Assembly (NCBI GenBank): GCA_030425145.1
Contig: JAUHVK010000005.1
Location: 62,001 to 126,000 of the forward strand
DNA length: 64,000 nucleotides
Source: Alphaproteobacteria bacterium
GTDB lineage: Bacteria; Pseudomonadota; Alphaproteobacteria; Rhodobacterales; Rhodobacteraceae
Reading direction: 5' to 3'
A program made the position numbers and the translations under genes. Positions 6,949-59,313 of the stretch are shown piece after piece. Position 1 is the first letter of the stretch. Every line of letters begins with the position of its first letter. Below the pieces are notes generated by a model, which was given only the letters and a program-made list of their open reading frames with translations, searched no databases and was not told the DNA's origin.

Positions 6949-6990
6949 AACGCCCTTCGAAGGGCGTTGCAAGCCGCGTCGACGCGGCTT
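6949..6990. repeat. Double palindrome element A (TCGA-centred)
   Basis: Two perfect 20-base palindromes stand two bases apart: 6949-6968 (AACGCCCTTCGAAGGGCGTT) and 6971-6990 (AAGCCGCGTCGACGCGGCTT). Both are centred on TCGA. They lie nine bases past the stop of the transaldolase-like gene and before its terminator. Sites at 9941, 23897, 32926 and 59277 have the same layout with different arms. Confidence 0.85.
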
Positions 6991-6998
6991 TGCCCGGC

Positions 6999-7652
6999 TC
7001 AGAGGATCTTGATATTGGCCGCTGCCGCGTCCTTGACGAACTGGTCCAGACCCTTGTCGGTCAGAACATGGTTCGCCATCGCCTTGATCACGGCGGGCGG
7101 CGCGGTTGCCACATCGGCACCGATCTTGGCGCATTCGCTCATGTGGTTTGCGCTGCGGATCGACGCGGCAAGGATGTTCGTCTCGAACCCGTAATTGTCA
7201 TAGATCTCGCGGATATCGGCGATCAGATCGAGCCCGTCCATGTTCAGATCGTCCAGACGTCCGATGAAGGGCGAAATGAAAGTGGCGCCAGCCTTGGCCG
7301 CCAGAAGCGCCTGATTGGCCGAGAAGCACAATGTGACGTTCACCATCTTGCCTTCGTCGGTCAGCACCTTGCACGCTTTCAGACCGTCCCAGGTCAGCGG
7401 CACCTTGACCGCGATGTTCTCTGCGATCTCGGCCAGCTTGCGGCCTTCGGCGATCATGTCTTCGGCTTTGAGGGCCACAACTTCGGCAGAGACCGGACCC
7501 GAGACCAGGTCACAGATCTCTTTAGTCACCTCAAGGATGTCCCGACCGGATTTCTTGATCAGGGAGGGGTTGGTGGTCACGCCATCGACCATGCCCAGAT
7601 CGTTGAGTTCCGCGATGGCGTCAATTTCGGCTGTGTCGACAAAGAATTTCAT
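6999..7652 (-). CDS. fsa: Fructose-6-phosphate aldolase / small transaldolase
   Basis: A 217-residue cytoplasmic enzyme of the short transaldolase family (FSA/TalC type). It begins [13 protein letters not shown], contains [13 protein letters not shown] and the Schiff-base lysine in [10 protein letters not shown], and later [11 protein letters not shown]. Such proteins either split fructose 6-phosphate or act as transaldolase in the pentose phosphate pathway; sequence alone does not separate the two. I use the ATG at 7652, which gives the family-standard N-terminus; the open frame could extend to 7709. It is divergent from priA with a 79-base gap between starts, and its transcript ends at the terminator at 6880-6919. 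Confidence 0.93.
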
Positions 7653-7731
7653 GGCTGTCGCTCCTGTGATGGGTTGGCCTTTCCTATCGTGGGCTTTACC
7701 CCATGGCAATGCAGACTGAAACCCGGAACTG

Positions 7732-9930
7732 ATGGCGCTAACACCCAGCTATTTCGACGAAGGCACTCTGATCGGCGTGCTGACGACCCAGCCTTTGGAC
7801 CGGGTGCTGGACTACCGTGCGCCCGAAGGCGGTTGTCATCTGGGCGCATTTGTCGAGGTGCCGCTTGGCCCTCGTAAGGTACTGGGCGTTGTCTGGGGTC
7901 CGGGGCGCGGCGATTATGACCTGTCGAAAATCCGGTCGGTCATCCGCGTGCTCGACGCCGCGCCCATGCGCGAAGAGTTGATGTCCTTTCTCTCCCGAGC
8001 CGGGGATTACACGCTCACACCGATGCCAGCGATGTTGCGGCTGGCCACACGCGCGCCGGGGCTGGGTGATCCGCCGTCGATGCGCAAAATTTACCGACTG
8101 GGCGAAGGCCTGCCGGACCGCATGACCGATGCCCGCACCCGCGTGCTCGACGTGCTGCGCGAGTTGGGTGGCCTGGCTCTTACGCTCAAGGAGCTGGCCG
8201 AGGCGGCGGGGGTGACTACCTCTGTCGTCAAAGGTCTGGTGAAACAGGGGGCCGTGCGCGAAGAAGACAGTCCGCGCGACACGCCGTTCCCCACGCTCGA
8301 CCCGGACTATGCTGGCAAAGCGCTGACCGAAGATCAGACGTCGGCTGCCGCAATTCTGCGCGCCGCTGTCGCCACACGCAGTTACGGCACGACCCTGCTC
8401 AAAGGCGTTACCGGATCGGGCAAGACCGAGGTCTATCTCGAAGCGGTCGCGGAATGTCTGGCGCAGGGCCGTCAGGCGCTGGTCCTCTTACCAGAGATTG
8501 CGCTGACTGCCGAATTCCTCACCCGAGTCGATGCACGCTTCGGGGCCAAACCCGCCGAATGGCATTCCGGCGTCACGATGACCGAGCGCCGCCGCGTCTG
8601 GAAAATGACCGCGCAGGGCGGCGCGCAACTGGTTGTCGGCGCACGGTCCGCATTGTTCCTCCCATTCCGTGATCTGGGCCTGATCGTTGTCGATGAGGAG
8701 CACGACACCTCCTACAAGCAAGAGGACGGGGTACTCTACAACGCACGCGACATGGCCGTGCTGCGCGCGTCGATCTGCGGCGCTCAGGTGATCCTTGCCT
8801 CGGCTACCCCCAGTCTGGAATCGTGGGCCAATGCCGACGCTGGCAAATATCAGAAGGTCGAACTGACCTCCCGCTTCGGTGCCGCTGTCATGCCCGAGAT
8901 GCGCGCCATTGACATGCGGAACGAACAACTCCCCGGCTCAAGCTGGATCTCGCCAACTCTGCAACGCGCCGTGCAGCAGCGTCTCGACAACAACGAACAG
9001 GCGCTCCTCTTCATCAACCGACGTGGCTATGCCCCTGTCACCATCTGCCGCGCTTGCGGGCATCAGATTGGATGCGATCACTGCGATGCGCGGATGGTCG
9101 AACACCGCTTCCTCAAACGCCTTGTCTGCCACCAATGCGGCGAGACGAAACCGATGCCCAGCACTTGCCCTTCATGTGAAGCCGAAGACAAACTGGCCGC
9201 CGTCGGCCCCGGTGTCGAACGTTTGGCAGAAGAGGCGCAGACGCTTTTTCCCGATGCCCGGCTTGCGGTGCTGTCGTCCGACATGTTCGGCTCCGCCCGC
9301 GCGCTGAAGGCAGAGATCGAGACCATCGCCAGTGGTGGAGCTGACCTCATCATCGGCACACAGCTTGTCGCCAAAGGCCACAACTTCCCGCTGCTCACAC
9401 TGGTCGGGGTGATCGACGCCGATCTAGGGCTTCAAGGCTCTGACCTCCGCGCAGCCGAACGGACCTTCCAACTGATGCGACAGGTGTCGGGCCGGGCAGG
9501 GCGCGCCGAAAAGCCCGGTCAGGCCTTGATGCAGACCTACCAACCCGAACACCCGGTGATCCGGGCGATCCTGTCTGGCGACGAACAGGATTTCTGGACC
9601 GCCGAGGCAGGCGAACGCCGTACCGCAGGCGTCCCGCCCTATGGCAGGCTCGCTGGGATCATTCTGTCCTCAACGGATGTGCAAGAGGTGTTCGACCTCG
9701 GCAACGCACTGGCCCGAAACGATGGGCCGCTGCGCCGTGTCGGCGCGCAGGTCTTTGGCCCGGCCCCGGCCCCCATCGCGCGTGTGCGTGGCCGCCACAG
9801 GGTACGACTTCTGGTCAAGGCTCCGAGGGGCACCGCGCTGCAACCCGCGCTGGCGGAATGGGTCAAACCCTTCCGCCTCAAGGGAGAGCTGCGCATGGCG
9901 ATCGACATCGACCCGCAGAGTTTCTACTGA
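7732..9930 (+). CDS. priA: Primosomal protein N' (replication restart helicase)
   Basis: A 732-residue superfamily 2 helicase that recognises stalled forks and reloads the replicative helicase. The N-terminal 3'-DNA-end-binding domain is followed by Walker A ([15 protein letters not shown]) and the DEEH box ([14 protein letters not shown]). A paired zinc-binding insert follows ([16 protein letters not shown], then [17 protein letters not shown], eight cysteines). Motifs near [12 protein letters not shown] and [13 protein letters not shown] complete the helicase core. Length and domain order are normal for PriA. It is transcribed alone, divergent from the transaldolase-like gene and convergent with the pxpC operon; a double palindrome lies between the convergent stops. 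Confidence 0.97.
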
Positions 9931-9940
9931 GGTCAACGCC

Positions 9941-9982
9941 GGTTTTCAGTCGACTGAAAACCCGGACGCGTCGACGCGTCCG
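9941..9982. repeat. Double palindrome element B (TCGA-centred)
   Basis: A perfect 22-base palindrome (9941-9962, arms GGTTTTCAG/CTGAAAACC around TCGA) directly abuts a perfect 20-base palindrome (9963-9982, CGGACGCGTCGACGCGTCCG). It fills the convergent gap between priA (stop at 9930) and pxpC (stop at 9989). No T-run follows on either strand, so it is not a classical terminator. Confidence 0.88.
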
Positions 9983-9988
9983 CGCCGC

Positions 9989-10990
9989 TCAATCCAGAAC
10001 GCAGGCATGGATGAGGTTCTCCCGCATCAACCTTTGGTCCAATGTCCCGCGTGGCACGGCGATCTGATCCAGATATTCCGCCTTGCACATCGCATAGTGG
10101 CGCGCCGCCCCAACGGCCTCAGCCGCCGAGACTGCCGCAAAACGAAACCCGTCCCCAGACCGCAATTGCACCAAACGTTCGATGTCCGGCGCAATCACCG
10201 TCGCGATCTTCGGATACCCTCCGGTTGTCTGATGATCGGCCAAGAGCACTGTCGGTACACCGTCCCCCGACACCTGTACCGATCCCCGCACAACCGGTTC
10301 CGACGGGATCGACAACGCGCCTGCAAGCTCCAGTTCAGACCCACGCAACCGCATCCCCATCCGGTCATAGGCATCGGTTACGGCAAACTTTTCGGTCAGG
10401 AACCGCGCCAGCGCGTCGCCCGAAAAGTGCTGGTCCTGCGGCCCGGTCACGACCCGCAGAGGTCCGTCCGCCAAAAACTCCGGCGGCGCGATCTCACCCG
10501 TGCGCTCCTCGCGCACAGACGCGCTGGTGATCCTCAACGTCTGCCCGGTCCGCAAAACCCCTCCGCCAAAGCCCGACGCCGCATGGGTCGCTGTGCTGCC
10601 CAGCCAGCTTTCCGCGCTCAGCGTTCCGGCAAAGGCGACATAAGCCCAACTGCCGGTTTTGCCGCCCCGGATGATCACGCGGTCGCCTTTCTCAACGGTC
10701 AGCACGCACCAAGCGCCAAGCTTCTGCCCGCGATGCTCGACCACAAACGCTCCGCCGGTTACGGCCAGCGTCACTGCGCCAGAGGTACATTGCAGCGCTA
10801 GACCTCCAAGCGAAACCTCGATCCCCGTTGTCCCCGGCGGATTGCCCAACGCCGCGTGCGCCGCATCAAAGGCAAGCCGGTCCATCGGGCCGGAGGCTGA
10901 CACACCGTATCGCATATGTCCCGGCCGGCCCGCGTCCTGCACCGTCACCAAAGGCCCAGCGAAACTGACCGTGAAAGTCGCATCAGACAT
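9989..10990 (-). CDS. pxpC: 5-oxoprolinase subunit C / biotin-dependent carboxyltransferase family
   Basis: A 333-residue protein of the KipA/PxpC (allophanate hydrolase subunit 2) family: GPLVTVQDAGRPGHMRYGVSASGPMDRLAF near the start, then a repeated beta-rich domain. With PxpA and PxpB it forms the ATP-dependent bacterial 5-oxoprolinase; in older annotations it is a KipI antagonist or urea amidolyase-like subunit. The ATG at 10990 matches the family start and overlaps the pxpB stop by eight bases; a longer frame to 11062 would add an unlikely Arg/His-rich leader. It is the last gene of the LysR-linked operon. No pxpA lies in this operon, so the complete enzyme would need a partner encoded elsewhere. 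Confidence 0.88.
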   Translation of the reverse strand: MSDATFTVSFAGPLVTVQDAGRPGHMRYGVSASGPMDRLAFDAAHAALGNPPGTTGIEVSLGGLALQCTSGAVTLAVTGGAFVVEHRGQKLGAWCVLTVEKGDRVIIRGGKTGSWAYVAFAGTLSAESWLGSTATHAASGFGGGVLRTGQTLRITSASVREERTGEIAPPEFLADGPLRVVTGPQDQHFSGDALARFLTEKFAVTDAYDRMGMRLRGSELELAGALSIPSEPVVRGSVQVSGDGVPTVLLADHQTTGGYPKIATVIAPDIERLVQLRSGDGFRFAAVSAAEAVGAARHYAMCKAEYLDQIAVPRGTLDQRLMRENLIHACVLD

Positions 10991-11672
10991 GGGCCACCTC
11001 CCTCTGCGCACGTGTAAATGTCGCAAGATCAATCCTCTGGAACACAACCCGGTCGCCCACATCGAAGAGGAACGGGCGCGCGGGATCCCGGGTCAGGATC
11101 GGCGTAGGCGACCGCCCAATGATCGACCACCCCGTCGGCATCGTAAGTGTGGTCACAAGGCATTGCGGCCCCGCGATGATCACGCTGCCCGCAGGCACGT
11201 CGCGCACCGGCGTCGGTTTGCGCGGGATTTGGATGTCCTCGGGAATGCCCGACAGATACGCGTACCCGGGCGAGAACCCGTACATCAACACATCATACTG
11301 TCCGGCAAGATGCGCGGCGATCACCGCATCCGGGGACATGCCCGTGGCCTCGGCAACCGCGTCGAGATCGGGCGCAAAATCCGCGTCATAGCAAACCTGC
11401 ACCTGCCGCACCTGACCTGCATTCTTCTCCGTTGTCACATGACGCAGAAGGTCGTGCAGATGGGTTTCGACGGCGACATGGTCGGTGAGGGTCACATCGA
11501 ACCGCACCAGCAGGTTCACCAGCGCTGGGACGGTTTCGATCATGCCGACGGGTGGAGAGGCTGCGATCGCCTTGTCCAGCGCGATGACACGCGCATGGGC
11601 GTCCGCGTTATGGGTGTCGGAAAAGCAGACCAAGAGGGAATGATCGGCAACAGGTTTGAACCAAGGTTCCAC
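10983..11672 (-). CDS. pxpB: 5-oxoprolinase subunit B (KipI/allophanate hydrolase subunit 1)
   Basis: A 229-residue protein of the KipI/PxpB family. Characteristic segments are FSDTHNADAHARVIALDKAI near the start, the long VCYDADFAPDLDAVAEATGMS stretch, VLMYGFSPGYAYLSGIP and PTPVRDVPAGSVIIAGPQ. In the 5-oxoprolinase complex PxpB and PxpC handle the ATP-dependent activation of 5-oxo-L-proline that PxpA hydrolyses to glutamate. It follows dctM by 42 bases and overlaps pxpC by eight bases, so transport and catabolic subunits are likely co-transcribed. Homologues can also act as a sporulation kinase inhibitor in Bacillus, a role not expected here. Confidence 0.9.
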   Translation of the reverse strand: MEPWFKPVADHSLLVCFSDTHNADAHARVIALDKAIAASPPVGMIETVPALVNLLVRFDVTLTDHVAVETHLHDLLRHVTTEKNAGQVRQVQVCYDADFAPDLDAVAEATGMSPDAVIAAHLAGQYDVLMYGFSPGYAYLSGIPEDIQIPRKPTPVRDVPAGSVIIAGPQCLVTTLTMPTGWSIIGRSPTPILTRDPARPFLFDVGDRVVFQRIDLATFTRAQREVAHV

Positions 11673-11714
11673 GGCATGGACCTCATTCTGAAAGAAACGA
11701 AAGAGCAGGTGGTT

Positions 11715-12998
11715 TTATTGCAGCGCGTTTGGCAGGAAGAGTGCGATGCTCGGGAACGCGATGAGAAAGAGCGCCATGGCCAGCATTGTTAGGCAGTAGG
11801 GCAACGCTCCCAACATCACCTCGTTCAAGGTTCCCGATTTCCGCGCTCCCTGCACGACATAGAGGTTCAAGCCGACCGGCGGCGTGATCAGTGCCATCTC
11901 GATCAGCACAATCATCAGGATGCCGAACCAGATCACGTCATAGCCCTGCGCAATGACCAGCGGCACGATTATCGGGATCGTCACCACCATCAGCGACAGC
12001 GTTTCAATGAAGAACCCGAGCACGATATAAAGCACCACCACCACAAGGATTGTCTTGAGCGGTGTCAGACCCAGCCCGGTCATGAACTCGGTCAATTCCC
12101 GCCCCAGCCCCGCCGAGGCCAGCGTGAAGTTGAGGAACGACGCGCCGATGACGATAAGCATGATCATCGAGGTGATTTTGACCGTCCCCATCAGGCTTTC
12201 GGTCAACATCCCCCAGGACACGCCGCCAAAGACCAGCGCGATGACCAGCGCCCCGGCCACGCCCACGGCAGCGGCCTCGGTCGGTGTGGCCCAGCCGCGA
12301 TAGATCGAGCCGACGATCAGGCCGAAGAGGATCAGGATCGGGATCAGGTCAATCAGCGCCCGCAGCATCTTGGCCAAGGGGAAGGTGCGGCGCACTCCGC
12401 CCAGATCCGGTCGGACAAGGCAGATCACCGCTGTGATGGCCATGAACGCCACCGCCAGCGCGATGCCGGGGATCAGCCCGGCGAGGAACAGCTGCGGGAT
12501 CGAGGATTGCGTCAGGAACCCGTAAACGATCAGGTTGATCGACGGCGGGATCATGATGCCCAGAGTGCCGCCCGCCGCAATCGCGCCAGAAAAGAGCTTG
12601 GGGTCATAGCCCAGTTTTTCGGCCTGCGGCATCGCCACTGTTGCCACCGTTGCAGCGGTGGCAACAGACGACCCTGAGGTGGCCGAAAACATCGTCGCCG
12701 TCGCAATATTGGCGTGCACCAATCCACCCGGCAGCCATGACACCCAACGATCCAGCGCCGCATATGTCCGCGTCGCAACTCCGCTGCGGACAAGGATCTC
12801 ACCCAGCAGTACGAAGAACGGAATGGCGATCAGCGTGGCCGAGTTCGAAGCCGACCACACCATGTTGCCCAGACCCCGCGTCAGCGGGAAGCTGGAGAAG
12901 AACGTATCAATCCCGAAGCCCAGCAGGAACAGCACGATCCCCACGGGAATGGACAGCGACAACAGGCCCAGAAGCCCGACGGAGACATAGAAGATCAT
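11715..12998 (-). CDS. dctM: TRAP transporter large permease (DctM)
   Basis: A 427-residue inner-membrane protein with about 12 hydrophobic helices, the ion-coupled transport subunit of a TRAP system. Segments such as AIPFFVLLGEILVRSG, GTLGIMIPPSINLIVYG and ALITPPVGLNLYVVQGA are typical of DctM. The ATG at 12998 overlaps the dctQ stop in an ATGA junction; the frame is open further upstream but that part is antisense-like and non-hydrophobic. A perfect 11-base inverted repeat (12639-12649 and 12656-12666) falls inside the coding region, within codons for an ATVATVA run, and is probably a by-product of repeated codons. Confidence 0.94.
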   Translation of the reverse strand: MIFYVSVGLLGLLSLSIPVGIVLFLLGFGIDTFFSSFPLTRGLGNMVWSASNSATLIAIPFFVLLGEILVRSGVATRTYAALDRWVSWLPGGLVHANIATATMFSATSGSSVATAATVATVAMPQAEKLGYDPKLFSGAIAAGGTLGIMIPPSINLIVYGFLTQSSIPQLFLAGLIPGIALAVAFMAITAVICLVRPDLGGVRRTFPLAKMLRALIDLIPILILFGLIVGSIYRGWATPTEAAAVGVAGALVIALVFGGVSWGMLTESLMGTVKITSMIMLIVIGASFLNFTLASAGLGRELTEFMTGLGLTPLKTILVVVVLYIVLGFFIETLSLMVVTIPIIVPLVIAQGYDVIWFGILMIVLIEMALITPPVGLNLYVVQGARKSGTLNEVMLGALPYCLTMLAMALFLIAFPSIALFLPNALQ

Positions 12999-13543
12999 TG
13001 CAGGCTGTCCTGTTCCGCAAAGGCCCCGACAAAGCTCTCGGTTTCGGTATGGCGCCGTTTGAGCAGCAGGCTCAGCGCCGCCAGTGTGACCAGCGTCGAC
13101 ATCACCGCAAACCAGACCCACCCGGCGAACCACGGCGCCTGAACCCAGGCCAGCGGTGTCTCAAGCGGCGTATTGGCGCGTGATCCGTTCACCAGCGACC
13201 GCTCCAGCACCGGCCAGGACATGATCGCGACGGTGATGATCACCGCGCTCATCACCACCATCGAAAACACATCGAACAATGCTCGCATGAACGACCCCGC
13301 GCGACTGCGCAATAGGTCGATACGCACATGCCCCAGTTCCAAGAGCGTAAAGGACATGCCCCAGGAGGTCGCGAGCGCCATGGCGTAGCCCGCGATCTCT
13401 TCGGTGCCGCCAAGCGACGTGCCGATCTGGCGCATGATGATGTCGAGCAGGACAAACCCCGCGCAGATCAGCAGGCCAAGACCCACCACAAGGGCAACGC
13501 CTCGGTTGATCCGGCGCAATCTATCGATCATCTCAAGTTCCAT
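12995..13543 (-). CDS. dctQ: TRAP transporter small permease (DctQ)
   Basis: A 182-residue membrane protein with four predicted helices, including LLICAGFVLLDIIMRQIG, the conserved GGTEEIAGYAMALATSWG segment and LELGHVRIDLL. These match the small DctQ subunit that scaffolds DctM. I start at the ATG at 13543, which has AGGAGG ten bases upstream; an in-frame start nine codons earlier lacks a good ribosome site. The gene lies between dctP and dctM, so all three TRAP components are present in one operon. Confidence 0.93.
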   Translation of the reverse strand: MELEMIDRLRRINRGVALVVGLGLLICAGFVLLDIIMRQIGTSLGGTEEIAGYAMALATSWGMSFTLLELGHVRIDLLRSRAGSFMRALFDVFSMVVMSAVIITVAIMSWPVLERSLVNGSRANTPLETPLAWVQAPWFAGWVWFAVMSTLVTLAALSLLLKRRHTETESFVGAFAEQDSLQ

Positions 13544-13577
13544 ATCCGGCACGCCTCCTGACGGCTTCAAGGCAAGA

Positions 13578-23896: not shown

Positions 23897-23939
23897 GGAT
23901 GACGCGCTGACGCGTCATCCGTTTCCGTGGACGGAAACG
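23897..23939. repeat. Double palindrome element C
   Basis: A hairpin with ten-base arms GGATGACGCG/CGCGTCATCC around CTGA (23897-23920) is joined directly to one with arms CGTTTCCG/CGGAAACG around TGGA (23920-23939). It lies 18 bases past the stop of the last nucleoside-transporter permease gene. The arms are related to sites B and D (GACGCG; TTTCCG) but the order of the GC-rich and A/T-rich hairpins is swapped relative to B. Confidence 0.85.
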
Positions 23940-28027: not shown

Positions 28028-28053
28028 CGGAGCGGCCGTGGCCGGCCGCTCCG
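28028..28053. repeat. Intercistronic hairpin after the BMP gene
   Basis: Perfect ten-base arms CGGAGCGGCC and GGCCGCTCCG surround a six-base loop in the 96-base gap between the binding-protein gene and the ATPase gene. No T-run follows. Stable hairpins at this place in ABC operons usually protect the upstream binding-protein message so that more of it is made than of the membrane parts. Confidence 0.75.
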
Positions 28054-28078: not shown

Positions 28079-29074
28079 TCAGAAGCTCAGCGCAGGGCAG
28101 CTGTCGTCCGACATATAGTCGTGAACGGCAAGCTCACCGCTGGCAATCTTGGCGGACGCCTCGTCGACGGCGGCCTTCATTTCGGCGCTGACCAGCGACT
28201 CGTTGTGTTCGTCCAGAGCGTAGCCGATACCACCATTGGCGATGCCCATGACGTTGATGCCGGTTTCCAGATCAGTGCCCGCTTTCATCGCGTCATAAAC
28301 CGCGTTGTCGACGCGCTTCATCATCGAAGTCAGCACCTGACCCGGGTGGAGGTAGTTCTGGTTGCTGTCCACGCCAATCGACAGGATGTTTTCGTCAGCA
28401 GCCGTCTGAAGAACGCCTACGCCGGTGCCGCCAGCAGCAGCGTAAACCACGTCAGCGCCTTGGCTGATCTGCGCCTTGGTCAACTCGGAGCCTTTCACCG
28501 GGTCGTTCCATGCTGCCGGAGTTGTGCCGGTCATGTTGGACACAACGGTCGCATCCGGGTTCACGGCTTTGACGCCCTGAGCATAGCCACAGGCGAATTT
28601 GCGGATCAGCGGAATGTCCATGCCGCCGATAAAGCCGACCGTGCCGGATTCAGACGCCATCGCGGCCATCATGCCGACGAGGTAGGAACCTTCATGCTCG
28701 TTGAACACAACGGAGCGTACGTTCGGCGAGTCAACTACCATGTCGATGATCGCGAACTTGGTGTCCGGATAATCGGGGGCCACTTCGGACAGCACGTTGC
28801 CGAATGCAAAGCCGGTCATCACGATCGGGTTGTTGCCGTTTTCGGCAAAGCGACGGAGCGCCTGTTCGCGCTGGGCTTCGGACTGAAGCTCGATCTCGCG
28901 GAACGACTCGCCGGTTTCTTCGGCCCAACGTACAGCGCCGTTGAACGCGGCCTCGTTGAAGGACTTGTCAAACTTGCCGCCCAGATCGAAGATCAGGGCC
29001 GGTTCGGCGACAGCCGCGCCTGCGGTCATCGCCAACGCAGCGGCGGCGCCGTAAAGTTTGGTCATAAGGGTCAT
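28079..29074 (-). CDS. BMP-family nucleoside-binding protein
   Basis: A 331-residue periplasmic binding protein of the basic membrane protein (BMP/PnrA) family, with signal peptide MTLMTKLYGAAAALAMTAGAAVA. Markers are LIFDLGGKFDKSFNEAAFNGA, the NEHEGSYLVGMMAAMAS segment and YAAAGGTGVGVLQTA. BMP proteins bind purine nucleosides and feed the ABC permeases encoded downstream. It lacks a lipobox cysteine, so it is soluble in the periplasm. GGGAG lies before the ATG at 29074. It is the first gene of the operon; the upstream gap (29075-29169) has a short GATCATGTGATC inverted repeat that might be regulatory. Confidence 0.94.
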   Translation of the reverse strand: MTLMTKLYGAAAALAMTAGAAVAEPALIFDLGGKFDKSFNEAAFNGAVRWAEETGESFREIELQSEAQREQALRRFAENGNNPIVMTGFAFGNVLSEVAPDYPDTKFAIIDMVVDSPNVRSVVFNEHEGSYLVGMMAAMASESGTVGFIGGMDIPLIRKFACGYAQGVKAVNPDATVVSNMTGTTPAAWNDPVKGSELTKAQISQGADVVYAAAGGTGVGVLQTAADENILSIGVDSNQNYLHPGQVLTSMMKRVDNAVYDAMKAGTDLETGINVMGIANGGIGYALDEHNESLVSAEMKAAVDEASAKIASGELAVHDYMSDDSCPALSF

Positions 29075-32925: not shown

Positions 32926-32968
32926 ATGCTTCGAAGTGCATTGGGCAAGCCTTTTCGAAAAGGCTTGC
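32926..32968. repeat. Double palindrome element E (TCGA-centred)
   Basis: A perfect 24-base palindrome (32945-32968, arms GCAAGCCTTT/AAAGGCTTGC around TCGA) is preceded three bases earlier by a weaker TCGA-centred dyad (32926-32941, ATGCTTCGAAGTGCAT). It lies 24 bases past the VOC gene stop and before ilvE. Its GCAAGCC arm also appears in the right-hand palindrome of site A. There is no T-run. Confidence 0.75.
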
Positions 32969-51786: not shown

Positions 51787-52856
51787 TTGTTGTCTTTACT
51801 ATGGCTGCCGCCCTTTGGGGGCTGGGTGCGTTGATGAAGATGCCGCGTAAGGCGCGGCTCTATATGATCGGGCTGCTTTATGTCGGGGTGCTGTTCATCC
51901 AAATCGCGTTGCCGGAGGGCCATCCGCTGCGCATGGCGACGGGCGAGAGTGCGGCGCTGTGGATCCTGCTGGGCGTCTTTGCGGCGGTTGCGGTGCTTTA
52001 TGGCAAGGTCGTCAAGAGTTTGAAGGACCGCGCAGTGGCCAAGGAAAAGGGTGACGCGGCGCCGGTGCAGCGCTCGACCAGTTTCTCGGCATCGGAACTG
52101 GAGCGCTATGCGCGCCATATTGTGCTGCGTGAGATCGGTGGCCCGGGCCAGAAGGCGCTGCGGGATGCCAAGGTTCTGGTGATCGGTGCCGGTGGGTTGG
52201 GCGCGCCCGCGCTGCAATACTTGGCGGCGGCGGGTGTCGGCACTATCGGGGTGATCGACGACGACGTGGTTGAGAATGCCAATCTGCAACGGCAGGTCAT
52301 TCACCGGGATGCGGATATCGGCATGCCCAAGGTGTTTTCCGCTCAGGCCGCAATGGTGGCGCAGAACCCGCATGTCGAGGTGCGCCCCTATCACCGTCGT
52401 ATGACGGATGACGTGGCTGAAACGCTGGTGGCGGAATATGATTTGGTGCTGGACGGCACCGACAATTTCGACACGCGCTATCTGGCGAACCGCGCGGCGG
52501 TTGCCTTGGGCAAGCCATTGATTTCTGGAGCGTTGTCGCAATGGGAGGGGCAGATCTCGGTCTTTGACCCGGCCTCTGGCACGCCGTGCTACCAGTGTGT
52601 TTTTCCCGAAGCGCCCGCGCCGGGGCTGGCCCCGTCCTGTGCTGAGGCCGGGGTGATCGGGCCTTTGCCCGGCGTGATCGGGTCGATAATGGCGGTTGAG
52701 GCGATCAAGCTGATCACGGGGGCGGGGCAGGCTTTGAAGGGTGAGATGCTGATCTACGACGCACTTTGGGGCGAGACCCGGAAAATCGGGCTGAAACCGC
52801 GCGACGACTGCCTGATCTGCGGTACGGCGTCTGTGGAAACGGCTGCGGCGCGCTGA
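51783..52856 (+). CDS. Membrane-anchored MoeB/ThiF/HesA-like adenylyltransferase
   Basis: A 357-residue fusion. Residues 1-80 contain three membrane segments ([52 protein letters not shown]). After a charged linker, residues from about 105 form a full E1-like domain: [67 protein letters not shown] and the zinc pairs CYQC and CLIC. No rhodanese domain follows. Such enzymes adenylate the C-terminus of MoaD/ThiS-like sulfur carriers. The overlap with dut (ATGA) shows coupling. The membrane part is unusual against the well-studied MoeB and ThiF. Confidence 0.88.
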
Positions 52857-52936
52857 ACGCCGCTTTCCCTGTGCGTGGCCCATTGTTGTTGGCGTCGGGC
52901 GGCCCTAGGTTTTGGGAAACCGAATAGGAGCCTTCA

Positions 52937-54949
52937 ATGACCAACCCGTTGCTAGAGACCTGGGACACAGAGTTCGGCCTGCCGCCGTTTGAGCAGATCG
53001 AGGACGCACATTTCGCGCCCGCTATCGAGGCCGCGATGGCAGATGGTCTGGCAGAGGTCGAAGCGGTGGCGAACAATCCCGAGCCGCCGACATTCGTGAA
53101 CACCATCGAAGGTCTGATGCAGACAGGCGCGGCGTTGGATCGGGTGCTGGGCGTGTTCTACAATCTGGCCGGGGCCGACAGCACCGACATGCGTGAAGAG
53201 ATCATGCGGGAGTTTTCGCCCAAGCTCGCGGCGCATTCGGCTGCGATCTATGGCAATCAGGCGCTGTTTGCGCGGATTGAACAGGTGTGGCTGGCGCGGG
53301 ATGCGCTGGATCTCACGCCAGAGCAGGCGCGGGTGCTGATGCTGACGCATCGCGGCTTCGTTCGCGCGGGTGCGGCGCTGACTGGGGATGAGGCGGCACG
53401 CATGAAAGAGATCAAGGGGCGGCTGGCGACCTTGGGCACGCAGTTCGGGCAGAACCTTCTGGCGGATGAGCGGGATTGGCAGCGGGCCTTGTCCGAGGAC
53501 GAGTTGGAGGGATTGCCTGCGTTTGTGGTGAACGCGGTGCGTGCGGCAGGCAAGGAGCGGGGGGCGGATGGCCCGGTTCTGACACTGTCACGGTCGGTGA
53601 TCGTGCCGTTCCTTCAGTTCTGTCCGAACCGGTCGTTGCGGGAAGAGGCATGGCGCGCTTGGGTGGCGCGCGGCGAGAATGGCGGAAAGACGGACAATCG
53701 AGGGGTTGCAGCCGAGATTTTGCAGTTGCGGGCCGAGCGGGCGAAGTTGCTCGGGTATGACGATTTTGCGTCCTACAAGCTTGAGACCGAGATGGCGAAA
53801 ACGCCTGAGGCTGTTCGCGGTTTGTTAATGGATGTGTGGGAGCCTGCGAAGGCGCGGGCTTTGGCGGATGCTGCGCTGCTGGAAGACAGGATGGCAGCCG
53901 ATGGTGTGAACGGCCCTCTGCAAGCGTGGGATTGGCGGTACTATTCCGAGGCGCGGCGGCGCGAGGAATTTGCGCTGAACGAGGCGGAGCTGAAGCCCTA
54001 TTTCCAGTTGGAAAAGATGATTCAAGCGTCCTTTGCCTGTGCCAATCGGCTGTTCGGGCTGGAGTTCCGGCCTTTGGGCGTGGCGCTGTACCATAAGGAC
54101 GCGCGGGCGTGGGAGGTGACGCGGAACGGGCAGCATGTGGCGGTGTTCATCGGGGATTACTTTGCGCGGGCGTCGAAACGGTCGGGTGCCTGGTGTTCTG
54201 CGATGCGGTCTCAGCGCAAGTTCCCGGATGTGCAGGCGCCGATCGTTGTGAATATCTGCAACTTCGCCAAGGGCGATCCGGCGTTGTTGTCCTACGACGA
54301 TGCGCGGACGCTGTTCCACGAGTTTGGCCATGCGCTGCATCAGATGCTGTCGGATGTGACCTATGACATGATCTCTGGCACATCGGTGGCGCGGGACTTC
54401 GTGGAGCTGCCGAGCCAGTTGTATGAGCATTGGTTGGAAGTGCCGGAGGTGCTTCAGGAATTCGCGGTCCATGCAGAGACCGGCGAGGCGATGCCTCAGG
54501 AGATGCTGGACAAGGTGCTGGCGGCGGCGACCTATGACATGGGGTTCCAGACGGTGGAATACGTGGCCTCGGCGCTGGTCGATCTGGCCTTCCACGAGGG
54601 TGAGCCGCCCGCTGATCCGATGGCGGAGCAGGCCGAGGTGCTGGCTAAGTTGGGGATGCCTGAGGCCATCGTGATGCGTCATGCCACGCCGCATTTTGCG
54701 CATGTGTTCACCGGGGACGGGTATTCGTCGGGGTACTACAGCTACATGTGGTCCGAGGTGATGGATGCGGATGCGTTCGAAGCGTTCGAGGAAGCGGGCG
54801 GCGCGTTTGATCCGGCGATGGCTGGCAAGTTGGAAGAGTTCATCCTCTCGGCGGGCGGGTCCGAGGAAGCAGATGTGCTTTACACCAAGTTCCGGGGGCG
54901 CATGCCGGGGGTTGAGGCGCTGCTCAAGGGCCGCGGGTTGGCGGCCTAG
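52937..54949 (+). CDS. prlC: M3 family oligopeptidase (oligopeptidase A/PrlC-like)
   Basis: A 670-residue zinc metallopeptidase. The active site is LFHEFGHALHQMLSD (HExxH with the downstream Glu in the SELPSQLYEHW-like segment, here VELPSQLYEHWLE). The start MTNPLLETWDTEFGLPPFEQI matches PrlC/Dcp types; the sequence is complete. It degrades small cytoplasmic peptides and signal-peptide remnants. ATAGGAG lies before the ATG. It is preceded by an 80-base gap and converges on the hypothetical membrane-protein gene. Confidence 0.95.
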   Translation: MTNPLLETWDTEFGLPPFEQIEDAHFAPAIEAAMADGLAEVEAVANNPEPPTFVNTIEGLMQTGAALDRVLGVFYNLAGADSTDMREEIMREFSPKLAAHSAAIYGNQALFARIEQVWLARDALDLTPEQARVLMLTHRGFVRAGAALTGDEAARMKEIKGRLATLGTQFGQNLLADERDWQRALSEDELEGLPAFVVNAVRAAGKERGADGPVLTLSRSVIVPFLQFCPNRSLREEAWRAWVARGENGGKTDNRGVAAEILQLRAERAKLLGYDDFASYKLETEMAKTPEAVRGLLMDVWEPAKARALADAALLEDRMAADGVNGPLQAWDWRYYSEARRREEFALNEAELKPYFQLEKMIQASFACANRLFGLEFRPLGVALYHKDARAWEVTRNGQHVAVFIGDYFARASKRSGAWCSAMRSQRKFPDVQAPIVVNICNFAKGDPALLSYDDARTLFHEFGHALHQMLSDVTYDMISGTSVARDFVELPSQLYEHWLEVPEVLQEFAVHAETGEAMPQEMLDKVLAAATYDMGFQTVEYVASALVDLAFHEGEPPADPMAEQAEVLAKLGMPEAIVMRHATPHFAHVFTGDGYSSGYYSYMWSEVMDADAFEAFEEAGGAFDPAMAGKLEEFILSAGGSEEADVLYTKFRGRMPGVEALLKGRGLAA

Positions 54950-54971
54950 CTGCCGGTTCCCCGTCCTGGCC

Positions 54972-56003
54972 TCATGGCGTGACCGAGCGGGCTTTGGACA
55001 GGACAGCCGCTGCAAAATCCGCGGCATCGCCCTTAAAGATTGTGAGGCGCGGGTCATCCTGCGCGTCAAGGCCATGGGCACGAAAGGTGCGTCGTTCTGT
55101 ACCCATACTCAACGTGGCCCCCAAATCTCCTCTGCTATTGATGCCCAAGGGATGGCCGCTTCGAAATGAGAACTGCGCAAGAAAGTGGTTTTGGGTTACT
55201 CCGGTGCGATGGTCGGTCAGGGTCACGCGGGTTATCGACCGTTTGTCTGCAGACTGGCCAAGGTCACGCATGTGCTGTGACGTAAAGAGGTCCGGGTGCG
55301 ACGACGGGACGATTTCCATCGTCAGGTCCGATTGCCGCGTGGGTCCGAAATAGCCGCACAGTCCCTGCGTGGGATTGATCTTTTCGCCGTCTTGCGGGGC
55401 AGGGCACGGCCCCTCTGACGGCTTGCTTCGATAGATGAAAGTGCTGCTCTCGCCGACACGCAAGACCTCCTGCGCCAGGCCATGCCGCAGAAGCGCCTTG
55501 CATATTGAACGGCATCCTGTCTGGGCATCCCTTGCAAAGTTGTGTTCGATGAGGTCGATGGACCTGACCTCCGAAATTTCTATGATGGGGCCGGTGCTCT
55601 GCAAGAAATTGAGTGCGCCTTTCGGCAGCTCACCGGTTGCTATCCGTTCCGAGGGGGCCATCTTTCTGCTGGTATCATATCTGGCGTCCCACACGATCAG
55701 GGCGACAATTGCCCCGGTTGCGGCGACAGAGGCAAAGAACGCCATCTGCGCTGACAAGGGGATGAACCGGAGGCCGATGTAGATCAACCGCGCAAGGCAG
55801 GCGATCATCGCCAGATACGGGAAGATGAGCAGCAGCAGCCCGGTCCCAAAGGGAATGCTCAGGATAGCGACCGCGATCCCCCCGGTTGGGGTGAAAGGGA
55901 ACAGACCCAAAAGGCAGAGGACTGCTATAAGCCCATCAATGCCTGTCGGGAAAAGTCGTTTCGTAGGGCGGCTACGGCGGGACGTGACTGGAACGCTACT
56001 CAT
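54972..56003 (-). CDS. Hypothetical membrane protein
   Basis: A 343-residue protein that I do not recognise. It starts with a basic tail (SSVPVTSRRSRPTKRLFP) and three membrane segments (GLIAVLCLLGLFPFTPTGGIAVAILSIPFG; LLLLIFPYLAMIACLARLIYIGL; AFFASVAATGAIVALIVW) up to about residue 105. A soluble, probably periplasmic, part of about 235 residues follows, with several cysteines (CRSICKALLRHG; CPAPQDGEK; GLCGYFG) that may form disulfides. Codon use and length favour a real gene. It stands between convergent prlC and the ArsR-like gene; nothing nearby indicates its role. Confidence 0.65.
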   Translation of the reverse strand: MSSVPVTSRRSRPTKRLFPTGIDGLIAVLCLLGLFPFTPTGGIAVAILSIPFGTGLLLLIFPYLAMIACLARLIYIGLRFIPLSAQMAFFASVAATGAIVALIVWDARYDTSRKMAPSERIATGELPKGALNFLQSTGPIIEISEVRSIDLIEHNFARDAQTGCRSICKALLRHGLAQEVLRVGESSTFIYRSKPSEGPCPAPQDGEKINPTQGLCGYFGPTRQSDLTMEIVPSSHPDLFTSQHMRDLGQSADKRSITRVTLTDHRTGVTQNHFLAQFSFRSGHPLGINSRGDLGATLSMGTERRTFRAHGLDAQDDPRLTIFKGDAADFAAAVLSKARSVTP

Positions 56004-56074
56004 GCCGGAAATGTCGTTGATCCTCGCGGCAGTTTTGTGACCCGGATATGAAGCCTTTAAGGAGTTGGACGTTG

Positions 56075-56407
56075 CTATGTTGTGTCAGGCCCAAGCTCCG
56101 TTTCCAGGAACCGTTCGAAGGCATCGAGGTTGATGGCTTCGAACTGACCGAAGGCCTGCATCCAGACGCTGGCATCACGAAGCGCGTCGGGTTCCAGTTT
56201 GCACCATTTCACACGACCGCGTTTTTCCTGACTGATCAACCCGGCATTGGCGAGGATCAGCAGGTGTTTCGAGATCGCGGCAAGCGACATCTCGAACGGT
56301 TCGGCCACGTCGGTGACGGCCATGTCATCCTCGAGCAACATCGTCAGGATCTGACGGCGGGTCGGGTCTGCCAGAGCGGCAAAGACGGTGTCGAGTGCTG
56401 GGGCCAT
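56075..56407 (-). CDS. ArsR/SmtB-family winged-helix regulator
   Basis: A 110-residue regulator. The winged helix reads VFAALADPTRRQILTMLLEDDMAVTDVAEPFEMSLAAISKHLLILANAGLISQEKRGRVKWCKLEPDALRDA across residues 8-80, with the recognition helix near SLAAISKHLLIL. The ELCVC metal box of ArsR is absent, so it is of the SdpR or stress type and not clearly metal-sensing. In many genomes these regulators precede a SRPBCC-domain (AHSA1) gene; none is present here. It is 71 bases from the hypothetical membrane-protein gene and diverges from the atp operon. Confidence 0.9.
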   Translation of the reverse strand: MAPALDTVFAALADPTRRQILTMLLEDDMAVTDVAEPFEMSLAAISKHLLILANAGLISQEKRGRVKWCKLEPDALRDASVWMQAFGQFEAINLDAFERFLETELGPDTT

Positions 56408-56579
56408 GGCGCGCAGTAGACGGAGATGGCTGGAAAACTCAACCGGAAAGTTGAATATGCGGAACGGGCCGAAAACGGGAGTTTTGCCCCTGCGACCGTT
56501 TGGTTGGTATCCTGGCTGAAAATGAAAAAGATTTATTTATCAAAGTAATAGGTGCGTATCGCCTGCGCCAAGCAGCGCC

Positions 56580-56608
56580 TTGACTCAGAGCATGCTGCAC
56601 CGTAGCAC
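56580..56608 (+). promoter_or_regulatory. Probable promoter of the F0 operon
   Basis: TTGACT (56580-56585), a 17-base spacer and TAGCAC (56603-56608) resemble a housekeeping sigma-70 promoter. It would start RNA about 25 bases before the atpI ATG. The flanking gap (56408-56638) is otherwise featureless apart from an AT-rich stretch near 56520-56545. Confidence 0.55.
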
Positions 56609-56638
56609 ATGCCCAAAGTTCCAACCGGGATGGAGCGC

Positions 56639-56986
56639 ATGTCTGACGACGATCCAAAGCAAAGGCTGAAAGAGCTGGAGGCGCGGATTGCAGCGGCCAA
56701 AGGGGCCAAGGAAGACAAGCCACACCAGGAGGAACATTACAGCCAGGCGCAACAAGCGTGGCGCATGGTGATCGAGATGGTGTCCGGTCTTGGGATCGGA
56801 TTTGGCATCGGATACGGGCTTGATGCGGTCCTAGGGACCGATCCGTGGTTGATGGTGCTGTTTACATTGCTGGGCTTCGCGGCGGGGGTGAATGTGATGA
56901 TCCGCACCGCCAAGGAGTTCCAGGTCAAGCAACTGGCCGATCTGGCCGGAGAGAACGAGAGGGATCGACATGGCGACGGAAGCTAA
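56639..56986 (+). CDS. atpI: ATP synthase protein I
   Basis: A 115-residue protein with a charged N-terminus ([26 protein letters not shown]) and two membrane helices ([37 protein letters not shown]). It is thought to help assemble the c-ring or handle magnesium/calcium. I use ATG 56639; an in-frame ATG at 56630 is possible and the frame opens at 56609. It overlaps atpB by 17 bases. It heads the F0 operon, as in other Rhodobacterales. Confidence 0.9.
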
Positions 56987-57728
56987 CGGTCACAGCGAAG
57001 GCGGACTGGTTTTCCACCCGATGGATCAGTTCATCGTCAAGCCGCTGTTCGGCGACGGTGCAGTGGGCATGTTCACCTTTACCAACGTGGCGCTCTGGCT
57101 CCTGCTGGCTGTGGCCTGCGTGGTCGCGCTGATGGTGCTTGGCACGTCCAAGCGCGCGACAGTGCCGACACGGGTGCAGTCGATCGCCGAACTGGCCTAC
57201 GGTTTCGTTTACAAGATGGTCGAGGATGTGACCGGCAAGGATGCGGTGAAGTATTTCCCGTATATCTTCACGCTGTTCATCTTCATAGCCTTCTCGAACT
57301 TCCTCGCCCTGATCCCGACGTCTTTCTCGCCGACCTCGCATATCGCGATCACGGCCATCCTCGGTTTCGGCGTCTTCATCGCGGTAACAGCCCTGGGCTT
57401 CATCAAGAACGGCGCGAGCTTCCTTGGTCTCTTCTGGGTGTCGAGCGCGCCGCTGGCGCTGCGTCCGATCCTCGCGGTGATCGAATTGATTTCCTACTTC
57501 GTGCGCCCCGTCAGCCACTCCATCCGTCTTGCGGGTAACATCATGGCTGGCCACGCGGTTCTCAAGGTGTTCGCCGGTTTCGCCGCGATCACTGCAGTCG
57601 CGCCGCTGTCGATCCTCGGCATCACGGCAATCTATGCACTGGAAGTGCTCGTGGCCTTCATTCAGGCTTACGTGTTCACGATCCTGACATGCGTGTACCT
57701 CAAGGACGCGCTGCACCCGTCTCACTAA
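56970..57728 (+). CDS. atpB: ATP synthase F0 subunit a
   Basis: A 252-residue membrane protein forming the proton half-channels next to the c-ring. Helices are spaced as usual. [17 protein letters not shown] holds the essential arginine, and [21 protein letters not shown] is the last helix. The start [12 protein letters not shown] fits alphaproteobacterial AtpB. A stable GC-rich hairpin follows the stop. Confidence 0.97.
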
Positions 57729-57732
57729 TACC

Positions 57733-57752
57733 GGTGGGTGCTTGCACCCACC
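57733..57752 (+). repeat. CUUG-loop hairpin between atpB and atpE
   Basis: GGTGGGTG, CTTG loop, CACCCACC: a perfect eight-base stem four bases after the atpB stop and about 35 bases before the atpE ATG. There is no T-run. A structure at this place may protect the atpE message, since ten or more c subunits are needed per complex. Confidence 0.7.
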
Positions 57753-57787
57753 CCAAGTTTCAACTTCCAATCGTAAGGAGAATTCAC

Positions 57788-58012
57788 ATGGAAGGCGATC
57801 TCGCACACATCGGCGCAGGCCTGGCAGCAATCGGTTCCGGCGCAGCCGCAATCGGGGTGGGCAACGTGGCCGGCAACTACCTCGCAGGCGCACTGCGTAA
57901 CCCGTCCGCTGCTGCTTCGCAGACAGCAACCCTCTTCATCGGTATCGCGTTCGCAGAAGCGCTGGGGATCTTCGCGTTCCTCGTGTCGCTGCTGCTGATG
58001 TTCGCCGTCTAA
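57788..58012 (+). CDS. atpE: ATP synthase F0 subunit c
   Basis: A 74-residue hairpin of two membrane helices that forms the proton-driven ring. The first helix has [21 protein letters not shown]; the second, [23 protein letters not shown], carries the essential proton-binding Glu in AFAEALG. AAGGAG lies before ATG 57788. No Na+-binding signature is seen, so the ring should use protons. It is flanked on both sides by hairpins. Confidence 0.97.
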
Positions 58013-58036
58013 GCTTCGGACTTAAATCCTTACGCG

Positions 58037-58067
58037 CGGGCGGTGCCGTAATCACGCGGCCCGCCCG
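58037..58067 (+). repeat. Hairpin between atpE and atpF'
   Basis: CGGGCGG (58037-58043) pairs with CCGCCCG (58061-58067) around a 17-base loop in the 85-base gap after atpE. There is no T-run. It matches the atpB-atpE hairpin in kind and so brackets the atpE message. Confidence 0.6.
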
Positions 58068-58097
58068 ATGTAACGAAAAGTTCCGACGGAGGACGAC

Positions 58098-58643
58098 ATG
58101 GCAACCGAAACCACTGGTACAGCCAGCGCATGTGTGGGCCCGGATGGCAGCGCCATCGGCATGCCGCAGCTTTGCGCCGACTGGATGCCGAACCAGATCT
58201 TCTGGCTTCTGATCGCGCTGATCGCGATTTACTTTGTCCTGTCCCGCATCGCGCTGCCGCGCATTGCGTCGGTTCTGGCGGAACGACAAGGCACAATTAC
58301 AAACGACCTCGCGGCTGCTGAAGATCTCAAGCACAAAGCTGTCGAGGCCGAAGAGGCCTATAACAAGGCTCTCGCCGATGCCCGTGCCGAAGCGCACGCG
58401 ATCATCGCAAAGAATAAGGCCGAAATGCAGGCCGAACTGGATAAGGCCATCGCCAAGGCGGATGCCGAAATCGCTGCGAAGGCAGCGGAGTCTGAAAAGG
58501 CCATTTCCGAAATTCGCGCCTCTGCTGTGCAGAGCGTGGAAGCCGTCGCCAAGGACACCGCAGGCAGCATCGTTGCCGCTGTGGGTGGTCAGGCGGATGA
58601 CGCGGCAGTAGCCGCTGCCGTAGACGCGCAGATGAAGGGGTGA
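58098..58643 (+). CDS. atpF': ATP synthase F0 subunit b' (AtpF')
   Basis: A 181-residue peripheral-stalk subunit with one N-terminal membrane helix ([20 protein letters not shown]) and a long Ala/Glu/Lys-rich coiled coil ([40 protein letters not shown]). It is the b' form found in phototrophs and Rhodobacterales that make heterodimeric stalks. A pre-helix region with Cys (SACVGPD; QLCADW) is a family trait. CGGAGGAC precedes the ATG. It directly precedes atpF. Confidence 0.95.
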
Positions 58644-58648
58644 ATGAC

Positions 58649-59209
58649 ATGAAACGTATCATGACCATTGCCGCAACATCGCTGCTCGCCAGCCCCGCCT
58701 TTGCCGCAAGCGGCCCGTTCTTCTCTCTGAAGAACACCGACTTCGTGGTGACTGTTGGTTTCCTCGTCTTCCTCGGCGTTCTGCTGTACTTCAAAGTTCC
58801 GTCGATGCTGATGGGCATGCTGGACAAGCGCGCCGACGGCATCAAGAACGAGCTCGACGAAGCCAAGGCGCTGCGTGAAGAAGCACAGGCTTTGCTGGCC
58901 TCCTACGAGCGCCGTCAGCGCGAAGTGCAGGAGCAGGCGGACCGTATCATTGCACATGCCAAGGAAGAAGCCGTTCTGGCCGGTGAGCAGGCGAAAGCCG
59001 ATCTGGAGAAATCCATCGCCCGTCGTATGGCGGCTGCCGAGGACCAGATCGCGTCGGCTCAGGCAAGCGCAGTCAAGGAAGTGCGCGACCGTGCGATTGC
59101 CGTGGCCATCAAAGCAGCCCGCGATGTGGTTGCGAAGCAGATGACCGCGAAAGACGCCGCCAAGAGCATCGACTCTGCGATTGCTGAGGTTGGCCAGAAG
59201 CTTCACTGA
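58649..59209 (+). CDS. atpF: ATP synthase F0 subunit b
   Basis: A 186-residue peripheral-stalk subunit. It starts with a signal-like leader ([19 protein letters not shown]), then the membrane helix [18 protein letters not shown], then a coiled coil rich in Ala, Glu and Arg. The ATG at 58649 has AAGGGG before it; a GTG at 58640 would overlap atpF' by four bases and add MND. It ends the F0 operon: a strong terminator follows 24 bases after the stop. F1 genes must lie elsewhere, as expected in this order. Confidence 0.95.
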
Positions 59210-59233
59210 GCTTTCTGATCGCTGAACGAAAAG

Positions 59234-59258
59234 AGCCCCGGTTGTCCGGGGCTTTTTT
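59234..59258 (+). terminator. Intrinsic terminator of the F0 operon
   Basis: AGCCCCGG, TTGT loop, CCGGGGCT and six Ts (59253-59258) form a strong Rho-independent terminator 24 bases past the atpF stop. Confidence 0.93.
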
Positions 59259-59276
59259 GTTTTGCGGGGGGGGCGT

Positions 59277-59313
59277 ATGCGTTGACGCATCCGGATTTTC
59301 CGTCGACGGAAAA
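59277..59313. repeat. Double palindrome element D
   Basis: ATGCG-TTGA-CGCAT (59277-59290) is followed five bases later by the perfect 18-base palindrome TTTTCCGTCGACGGAAAA (59296-59313). It lies seven bases past the yggS stop, beside the atp terminator, in a convergent gap. The arms resemble those of site C (TTTCCG) and have the same kind of four-base centre. Confidence 0.83.

What the first reader, a model, noticed from the sequence alone, without database searches (positions are those of the whole stretch)
6949..59313. Family of double palindromes with a TCGA-type centre placed just after stop codons
Five sites share one design: A 6949-6990, B 9941-9982, C 23897-23939, E 32926-32968 and D 59277-59313. 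Each has two adjacent palindromes, 0-5 bases apart, whose centres are TCGA or a variant (CTGA, TGGA, TTGA). Arms run from 5 to 10 bases each side and differ between sites, but nine of ten pair perfectly (the left half of E is degenerate). All five lie 7-24 bases past the stop codon of a gene (transaldolase-like, pxpC, last nucleoside permease, VOC, yggS). None is followed by a T-run, and sites A and D have a separate true terminator beside them. Changes in arms with pairing kept point to selection on structure, or to a mobile REP-like family.
Basis: partly seen in the sequence, partly recalled or inferred. Interest (0 to 1): 0.78.

Follow-up and report, generated by a model that had tools for sequence, protein, structure and literature searches.

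The report
Paired hairpins just past gene ends
Bacteria of the genus Marivita carry many copies of a short DNA element that can fold into two neighbouring hairpins and sits a few bases past the ends of genes; it looks like a new branch of the known REP-type repeats, probably acting on the tail of the messenger RNA.

Summary
The five sites belong to repeats dispersed through a Marivita (Rhodobacteraceae) genome. In 574 kb of it, a scan for paired palindromes with T-NN-A centres 20-26 bp apart finds 20 sites against 0-1 in six shuffles; all 19 intergenic ones lie within 25 bp of a facing stop codon. The main family (GTTTCCG-TCGA-CGGAAAC beside GGATGCG-TCGA-CGCATCC, centres 21-22 bp apart) is hit in 17 of 17 Marivita genomes but in 1 of 148 other Rhodobacteraceae. 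A sibling family of the same geometry is hit in 42 of 148 other genera and 0 of 141 further genomes of the class. In 28 of 34 unidirectional sites the GC-rich hairpin comes first after the stop. Orthologous copies are better conserved than fourfold sites at three loci, yet copies are also lost or gained. No Y1/RAYT transposase was found in this genome, and GTAG/CGTC tags are not general. Best reading: an untagged REP-like family acting as a hairpin pair at mRNA 3' ends. Function is inferred; template switching between arms may explain much of the pairing.

The parts
6949..6990 (.). Site A: AACGCCCT-TCGA-AGGGCGTT, 2 bases, AAGCCGCG-TCGA-CGCGGCTT; 8 bases past the stop of the transaldolase-like gene (minus strand)
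   Evidence: orthologs in L010, L011, L015, L012 with altered arms, absent in L009 and L014
9941..9982 (.). Site B: GGTTTTCAG-TCGA-CTGAAAACC (H1) and CGGACGCG-TCGA-CGCGTCCG (H2) between convergent priA and pxpC
   Evidence: orthologous pairs with other arms in L012, L013, L014, decayed in L010, L011, L015
23897..23939 (.). Site C: GGATGACGCG-CTGA-CGCGTCATCC (H2) and CGTTTCCG-TGGA-CGGAAACG (H1); 17 bases past the stop of a BPD_transp_2 permease (minus strand); gene reads H1 first
   Evidence: altered arms at the same place in G002
32926..32968 (.). Site E: decayed left hairpin and GCAAGCCTTT-TCGA-AAAGGCTTGC; 23 bases past the stop of a glyoxalase-family gene (minus strand)
   Evidence: left hairpin perfect in G002
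59277..59313 (.). Site D: ATGCG-TTGA-CGCAT (H2) and TTTTCCG-TCGA-CGGAAAA (H1); 6 bases past the stop of the yggS-like gene (minus strand); gene reads H1 first
   Evidence: recognisable element in 11 of 17 Marivita genomes at this gene
6890..6919 (-). Intrinsic-terminator-like hairpin with T-run beyond site A
59234..59253 (.). Separate terminator-like hairpin AGCCCCGG...CCGGGGCT beside site D, T-rich on both sides
4495..4510 (.). Empty place behind a minus-strand gene: four relatives (L009, L012, L013, L016) have a pair here

Best explanation
Each site is a copy of a dispersed REP-like repeat made of two abutting hairpins (stems of about 8-9 bp, T-NN-A loops, centres mostly 21-22 bp apart). Shown: copies occur in all Marivita genomes searched; the copies examined lie behind gene ends, nearly all within 25 bp of a facing stop, none between divergent genes; the GC-rich hairpin (H2) usually comes first in the gene's sense; arm changes between copies are mostly paired; orthologous copies are better conserved than fourfold sites of the gene before them; copies are also lost or gained. 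Inferred: the element works in the mRNA. Transcribed just behind the stop codon, the two hairpins form a stable 3' structure that stops 3'-to-5' exonucleases and so sets or protects the mRNA 3' end; within about 15 nt of the stop it may also slow translation, as REPs do in E. coli. Read H2 then H1, the short T-stretch in the arm of H1 follows H2 and may add weak termination. Perfect arms are refreshed partly by template switching. How copies spread without a RAYT transposase is unknown.
For: Dispersed copies; 19 of 19 intergenic pairs within 25 bp of a facing 3' end, 13.7% expected, p 4e-17, and 0 divergent where 31% of slots are divergent; 53 distinct sites: 28 unidirectional with H2 first, 6 with H1 first (p 2e-4), 19 convergent, 0 divergent, and 23 of the 28 start within 15 nt of the stop; covariation; conservation above fourfold sites: 0.80 against 0.44 in 45 of 45 pairs behind yggS, 0.795 against 0.589 in 21 of 21 at B, 0.80 against 0.64 in 9 of 10 at A. 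[quoted passage not shown] coli (passages of PMC12306157).
Against: No RNA data. A and D have ordinary terminators as well. G-U and A-C cells on the sense strand are too few to show RNA-level selection (2 and 3). Orthologous copies behind yggS hold 10 G-U and 23 other mismatched cells, and 6 of 17 genomes have no full element there. Clean losses or gains occur. The conservation counts leave out copies decayed beyond recognition, and gene conversion between copies could also keep them alike. In Rhodobacter sphaeroides no more stable folds were found upstream of the 3' ends enriched in wild type over a PNPase mutant (passages of PMC7866481). Site D folds hardly better than shuffles.
Confidence: 0.5

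Rival explanations
1. Selfish or neutral palindromic repeats without a function for the host: copies survive behind stop codons because little is harmed there, and then decay.
For: Genus-restricted sequence, uneven hit numbers of 17-132 between genomes, filled and empty places, decayed copies, tandem arrays.
Against: Order relative to the gene (28 to 6) and conservation above fourfold sites at three loci. No transposase of the REP kind in this genome, and no target duplication could be made out at the one empty place examined.
Confidence: 0.3
2. Bidirectional intrinsic terminators made of two hairpins without a classical U-tract.
For: Place behind stops and between convergent genes; 15 of 17 element-bearing gene ends have no other T-run terminator beyond the element; read H2 then H1, 11 of 17 ends have 4 T in 6 behind a hairpin. 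Hairpin clusters without U-tracts have been proposed as terminators (passages of PMC8355165).
Against: 0 of 17 reach 5 T in 6. Behind yggS and fsa a normal terminator follows. Ends without an element have such terminators at no lower rate (50 of 226 against 2 of 17, Fisher p 0.54), so the element does not clearly replace them.
Confidence: 0.2
3. The perfect pairing comes from mutation: template switching between the arms during replication keeps copying one arm onto the other, without selection on structure.
For: Between copies 57 cells are changed on both sides but 4 on one side only. In a G013 array one copy has AGGGG at the junction where its neighbour has ATTGG, which extends the stem onto the CCCCT flank. 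Loops occur in both orientations, TCAA and TTGA. Template switching is reported to homogenise short inverted-repeat arms and to invert spacers (passages of PMC8604942).
Against: It does not explain the shared core sequences, the T-NN-A rule, the place behind stops or the order relative to the gene; orthologs behind yggS do keep unpaired cells. It can act together with the best explanation.
Confidence: 0.4
4. A DNA-level element: a cruciform or a dyad recognised by a DNA-binding protein, two turns apart on one face of the helix.
For: Near-perfect Watson-Crick symmetry, almost no one-sided changes, centres 21-22 bp apart in most copies.
Against: Arms differ freely between copies and above all in the sibling family, so no common binding sequence remains besides T-NN-A; order depends on gene direction; spacing follows from two abutting stems.
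Confidence: 0.1

Closest known systems
CGTC-tagged REPs, mostly of alphaproteobacteria (Di Nocera et al. 2013, PMC3733652; outline with abstract, passages and section 6 seen)
   Same: Stems of 8-9 bp, loops of 4-5 bases, often as dimers, mostly within 20 bp of ORF 3' ends in convergent and unidirectional gaps, no dedicated transposase.
   Different: No general CGTC tag; both units are palindromes with T-NN-A loops, in fixed unlike pairs with centres 21-23 bp apart.
GTAG REPs / BIMEs / REPINs with RAYT transposases
   Same: Dispersed short palindromes in pairs behind genes; many copies per genome.
   Different: No GTAG or GGAG tag as a rule and no Y1 transposase in this genome.
Hairpin-cluster terminators (Gupta and Pal 2021, PMC8355165; passages seen)
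   Same: Adjacent hairpins close behind the stop, no need of a U-tract.
   Different: Those are defined by folding and RNA-seq; here a sequence family with paired arm changes, followed by an ordinary terminator at A and D.

Membership tests
REP-like repeats (broad sense) | Short palindromic units in many copies, extragenic, mostly downstream of ORFs | tested here: met
   17 distinct R1 sites with E below 0.001 in 574 kb (roughly 145 per genome by extrapolation, two of the three contigs having been chosen for holding copies); 19 of 20 pairs intergenic, all 19 behind a gene end
GTAG REP / REPIN | GTAG or GGAG tag at the stem foot | tested here: not met
   GTAG 0 and GGAG 1 at four edges of 53 sites
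GTAG REP / REPIN | RAYT (Y1) transposase in the genome | tested here: not met
   PF01797: no match in G000; 4 of 17 genomes of the genus
CGTC REP | Unpaired CGTC (TGTC, CCTC) at one end | tested here: not met
   17 occurrences of any of five tags at the edges of 53 sites against 12.4 expected; 15 of them (11 CGTC, 4 CCTC) are at one edge and lie in the variable arm of H2
CGTC REP | Short CCA tail | tested here: inconclusive
   C-rich flank behind H2: C in 38 of 53 at two positions
CGTC REP | Stem of 8-9 bp and loop of 4-5 bases | tested here: met
   Pairs 1-8 are Watson-Crick in 48-53 of 53 sites around a 4-base loop (sites chosen by a structure model)
Intrinsic (Rho-independent) terminator | Hairpin followed at once by a T-run | tested here: not met
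   0 of 17 ends at 5 T in 6; 11 of 17 at 4 T in 6
MITE of an insertion sequence | Terminal inverted repeats of an IS and target duplication | tested here: inconclusive
   Clean filled and empty places, no clear duplication; no IS search was made
Known Rfam family | Match at gathering score | tested here: not met
   0 in the window; in 9 loci one hit at E 0.96, below its gathering score

The most novel reading that the evidence does not exclude
Rhodobacteraceae carry a class of paired 3'-end hairpins defined by geometry and not by sequence: two stems of about 9 bp with T-NN-A loops, centres 21-23 bp apart, right behind stop codons. Each lineage has its own arms; no RAYT is needed; arms are kept complementary by templated homogenisation, and copies are kept by selection as mRNA 3'-end caps that stand in for terminators with a T-run.
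Probability: 0.3. Interest if true: 0.68.

Novelty: new variant of a known kind. Interest (0 to 1): 0.5.

Why it matters
REP-type repeats have been known for decades, but how untagged families without a transposase arise, spread and stay perfectly paired is open. This genus offers many copies per genome, relatives with filled and empty places, orthologs with exchanged arms and a preferred order relative to the gene, so that selection, templated mutation and mobility can be told apart. T-run terminators are scarce behind genes in the sampled contigs (24 of 226 ends without an element at the stricter setting), so how such mRNAs get their 3' ends is a live question.

Tried and rejected
Chance: rejected by shuffles. 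RAYT-driven REPIN: no Y1 transposase in the genome. A restriction or methylation site TCGA or GTCGAC: rejected, since the central NN varies and T and A are kept. An outer helix closing both hairpins into one junction: 3 of 53 sites against 6.0 and 4.5 in shuffles, so no. A first count that element-bearing ends have T-run terminators far more often (10 of 11 against 44 of 185) was an artefact of counting the element's own T-stretch; recounted. G-U against A-C on the sense strand: too few cells to decide. A sequence-free scan for pairs in 719 kb of 71 loci from other genera found 7 against 2-4 in four shuffles, two of them T-NN-A on both sides; these two and one weak R1 hit (L143) led to the sibling family. 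MAFFT alignments of the yggS and sibling copies misplace the spacer gap; I counted by centre instead and used only the ten siblings of equal length.

Rows dropped: alignment A1 uses 20 of the 34 pairs (11 of unclear order and C74 171300, L009 2738, L010 2738 left out). One search uses 56 of 58 loci (L120 not located, L143 another genus), 53 of them distinct; they are the best-scoring hits, which favours pairing. One search uses 10 of 17 yggS loci (six without a full element, L195 not alignable). One search uses 7 sequences for B and 5 for A. The partner hairpins of the sibling family were found by maximising pairing with a small bonus for T..A; one search repeats the loop count without that bonus. 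R2 was built from copies in 8 of the genomes that it was then run on, so those 8 match by construction. Hits can include one element read on both strands, as one search shows, and only 150 candidates per genome were scored.
Full report
WHERE. The window lies in a 4.91 Mb genome, contig C101:62001-126000. Its fsa protein is closest to Marivita species and to MAGs named only as Rhodobacteraceae or Alphaproteobacteria; 16 other genomes held are of its genus. Contig C12 of genome G002 has the length of contig 2 of M. geojedonensis DPG-138, 389,263 bases, which supports the genus name.

OBSERVATION. The five sites are there. In the window, 7 palindromes with arms of 9 or more around a 2-base centre stand against 0.4 in shuffles. 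In two further contigs plus the window, 52 palindromes have arms of 8 or more around a 4-base loop; 23 of the 52 loops are TCGA (18), TCAA (3) or TTGA (2), and shuffles give about 16 such palindromes in all. A DNA search with site B finds similar places on five other contigs.

FAMILY. Copies line up as H1 (GTTTCCG-TCGA-CGGAAAC) and H2 (GGATGCG or GGACGCG-TCGA-CGCATCC), centres 21 or 22 bp apart. On 20 copies 94.1% of 340 cells pair; 57 cells are changed on both sides and 4 on one; covariation 0.432 against 0.116 in shuffles and at most 0.091 in slid structures. The pairs at the stem foot vary most: pair 8 of H1 is CG, TA, GC or AT in 18, 11, 10 and 9 of 53 sites (sites picked by a structure model). 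Sites A and E, with AAG or CAAG arms, are of a second, looser kind in the same genome.

DISTRIBUTION. Model R1 hits 17 of 17 Marivita genomes, 17-132 times each at E <= 0.01; 150 candidates per genome were scored and one element can count on both strands. In 574 kb of the own genome 17 distinct sites have E below 0.001. Among 149 Rhodobacteraceae genomes at E <= 1e-4, only the own one and one other (a single hit, 1.2e-5) match, with stricter filters. That hit (L143) and two pairs from other genera led to a sibling family: CAAATTTC-N-T-NN-A-N-GAAATTTG, exact in 13 of 148 other genera, beside a second hairpin with very variable arms. On ten siblings 23 cells are changed on both sides, all in the second hairpin, the first having been fixed by the pattern. 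Model R2 matches 42 of 148 other Rhodobacteraceae genomes (24 of them five times or more; 8 gave copies to the model) and the own one once, weakly; it matches 0 of 141 other genomes drawn from the class. Of 19 of the best sibling loci, 17 lie within 25 bp of a facing 3' end, none between divergent genes, and T..A flanks 36 of 38 loops.

POSITION AND ORDER. Genes were called with a simple hexamer method of my own. The 20 pairs in 574 kb are 10 convergent, 9 unidirectional, 0 divergent and 1 inside a called gene near a contig end; all 19 intergenic ones are within 25 bp of a facing 3' end, against 13.7% of random slots, and 31% of slots are divergent. Among 53 distinct sites, 28 are unidirectional with H2 nearest the stop, 6 with H1 nearest, 19 convergent, 0 divergent. 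The genes of window sites C and D read the minority order.

TERMINATORS. Of 17 element-bearing gene ends, 2 (those of A and D) have a T-run terminator beyond the element; of 226 other ends 50 have one, or 24 at the stricter setting. The elements neither accompany nor clearly replace such terminators.

EVOLUTION. Behind yggS, 11 of 17 genomes have a recognisable element in the same order, which suggests one ancestral copy; three have unrelated sequence straight after the stop, one a possible remnant, two no element. In the 11: 134 cells as the majority, 9 Watson-Crick double changes, 10 G-U, 23 other mismatches (L195 is poorly aligned in this count). Over the hairpins ten of them are 80% identical, while fourfold sites of yggS are 44% identical (45 of 45 pairs); at B 79.5% against 58.9% (21 of 21), at A 80% against 63.7% (9 of 10). 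Copies decayed beyond recognition are not in these counts, and gene conversion between copies could have the same effect. Against strict retention: site A is absent in L009 and L014 and grown to four hairpins, one imperfect, in L017; at about window 4500, L009, L012, L013 and L016 have a pair which this genome, L010, L011, L014 and L017 lack (L015 not placed). The tree puts this genome beside L012, with L009 next, so loss here is likely, though repeated gain is not excluded. Between our genome and G002, sites A, C, D and E are at the same places with altered arms. Arrays in G009 and G013 hold three copies at steps of 103-105 bp, with arm differences that keep pairing.

MECHANISM. Place behind the stop, order relative to the gene, pairing and conservation point to an element read in RNA; the simplest role is a 3'-end cap and, within 15 nt of the stop, an effect on translation as described for E. 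coli REPs (passages of PMC12306157). Against a general exonuclease block: a study in R. sphaeroides found no more stable folds upstream of the 3' ends concerned (passages of PMC7866481). Template switching between arms (passages of PMC8604942) may supply much of the double change. How copies spread is unknown.

KNOWN OR NEW. My searches of the paper library listed no paper that I could recognise as describing these elements, and Rfam has no match. The figures of PMC3733652 are not held; its text does not hold the words Rhodobacter, Roseobacter, Ruegeria, Paracoccus or Silicibacter, though names abbreviated to an initial would escape that test. I file the elements as an untagged REP-like family, a new variant of a known kind.

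Noticed in passing
57733-57752: Perfect palindrome GGTGGGTG-CTTG-CACCCACC five bases past the end of the called gene 56970-57728; a hairpin behind a stop but not of the T-NN-A kind.
   Followed up: no
28028-28053: Strong GC-rich hairpin 25 bp past the end of a minus-strand gene (28079-29074), other loop.
   Followed up: no
L260, L261 (G009 C100, G013 C78): Tandem arrays with three double hairpins at steps of 103-105 bp; L262 (G007) has two copies 60 bp apart. Such arrays could be used for strain typing.
   Followed up: partly
L017 5680-5770: Behind fsa a run of four hairpins of the AAG/AACG kind, one imperfect, where the window has two.
   Followed up: partly
L012, L061, L057, L081 behind fsa: In Loktanella-like genomes (L057, L061) and L081 a different single palindrome, GGTAAGGTGGATC-GATCCACCTTACC type, lies behind the same gene.
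   Followed up: no
G001, G005, G007, G016: Four Marivita genomes have Y1 transposase genes; whether REPs with tags flank them was not looked at.
   Followed up: no
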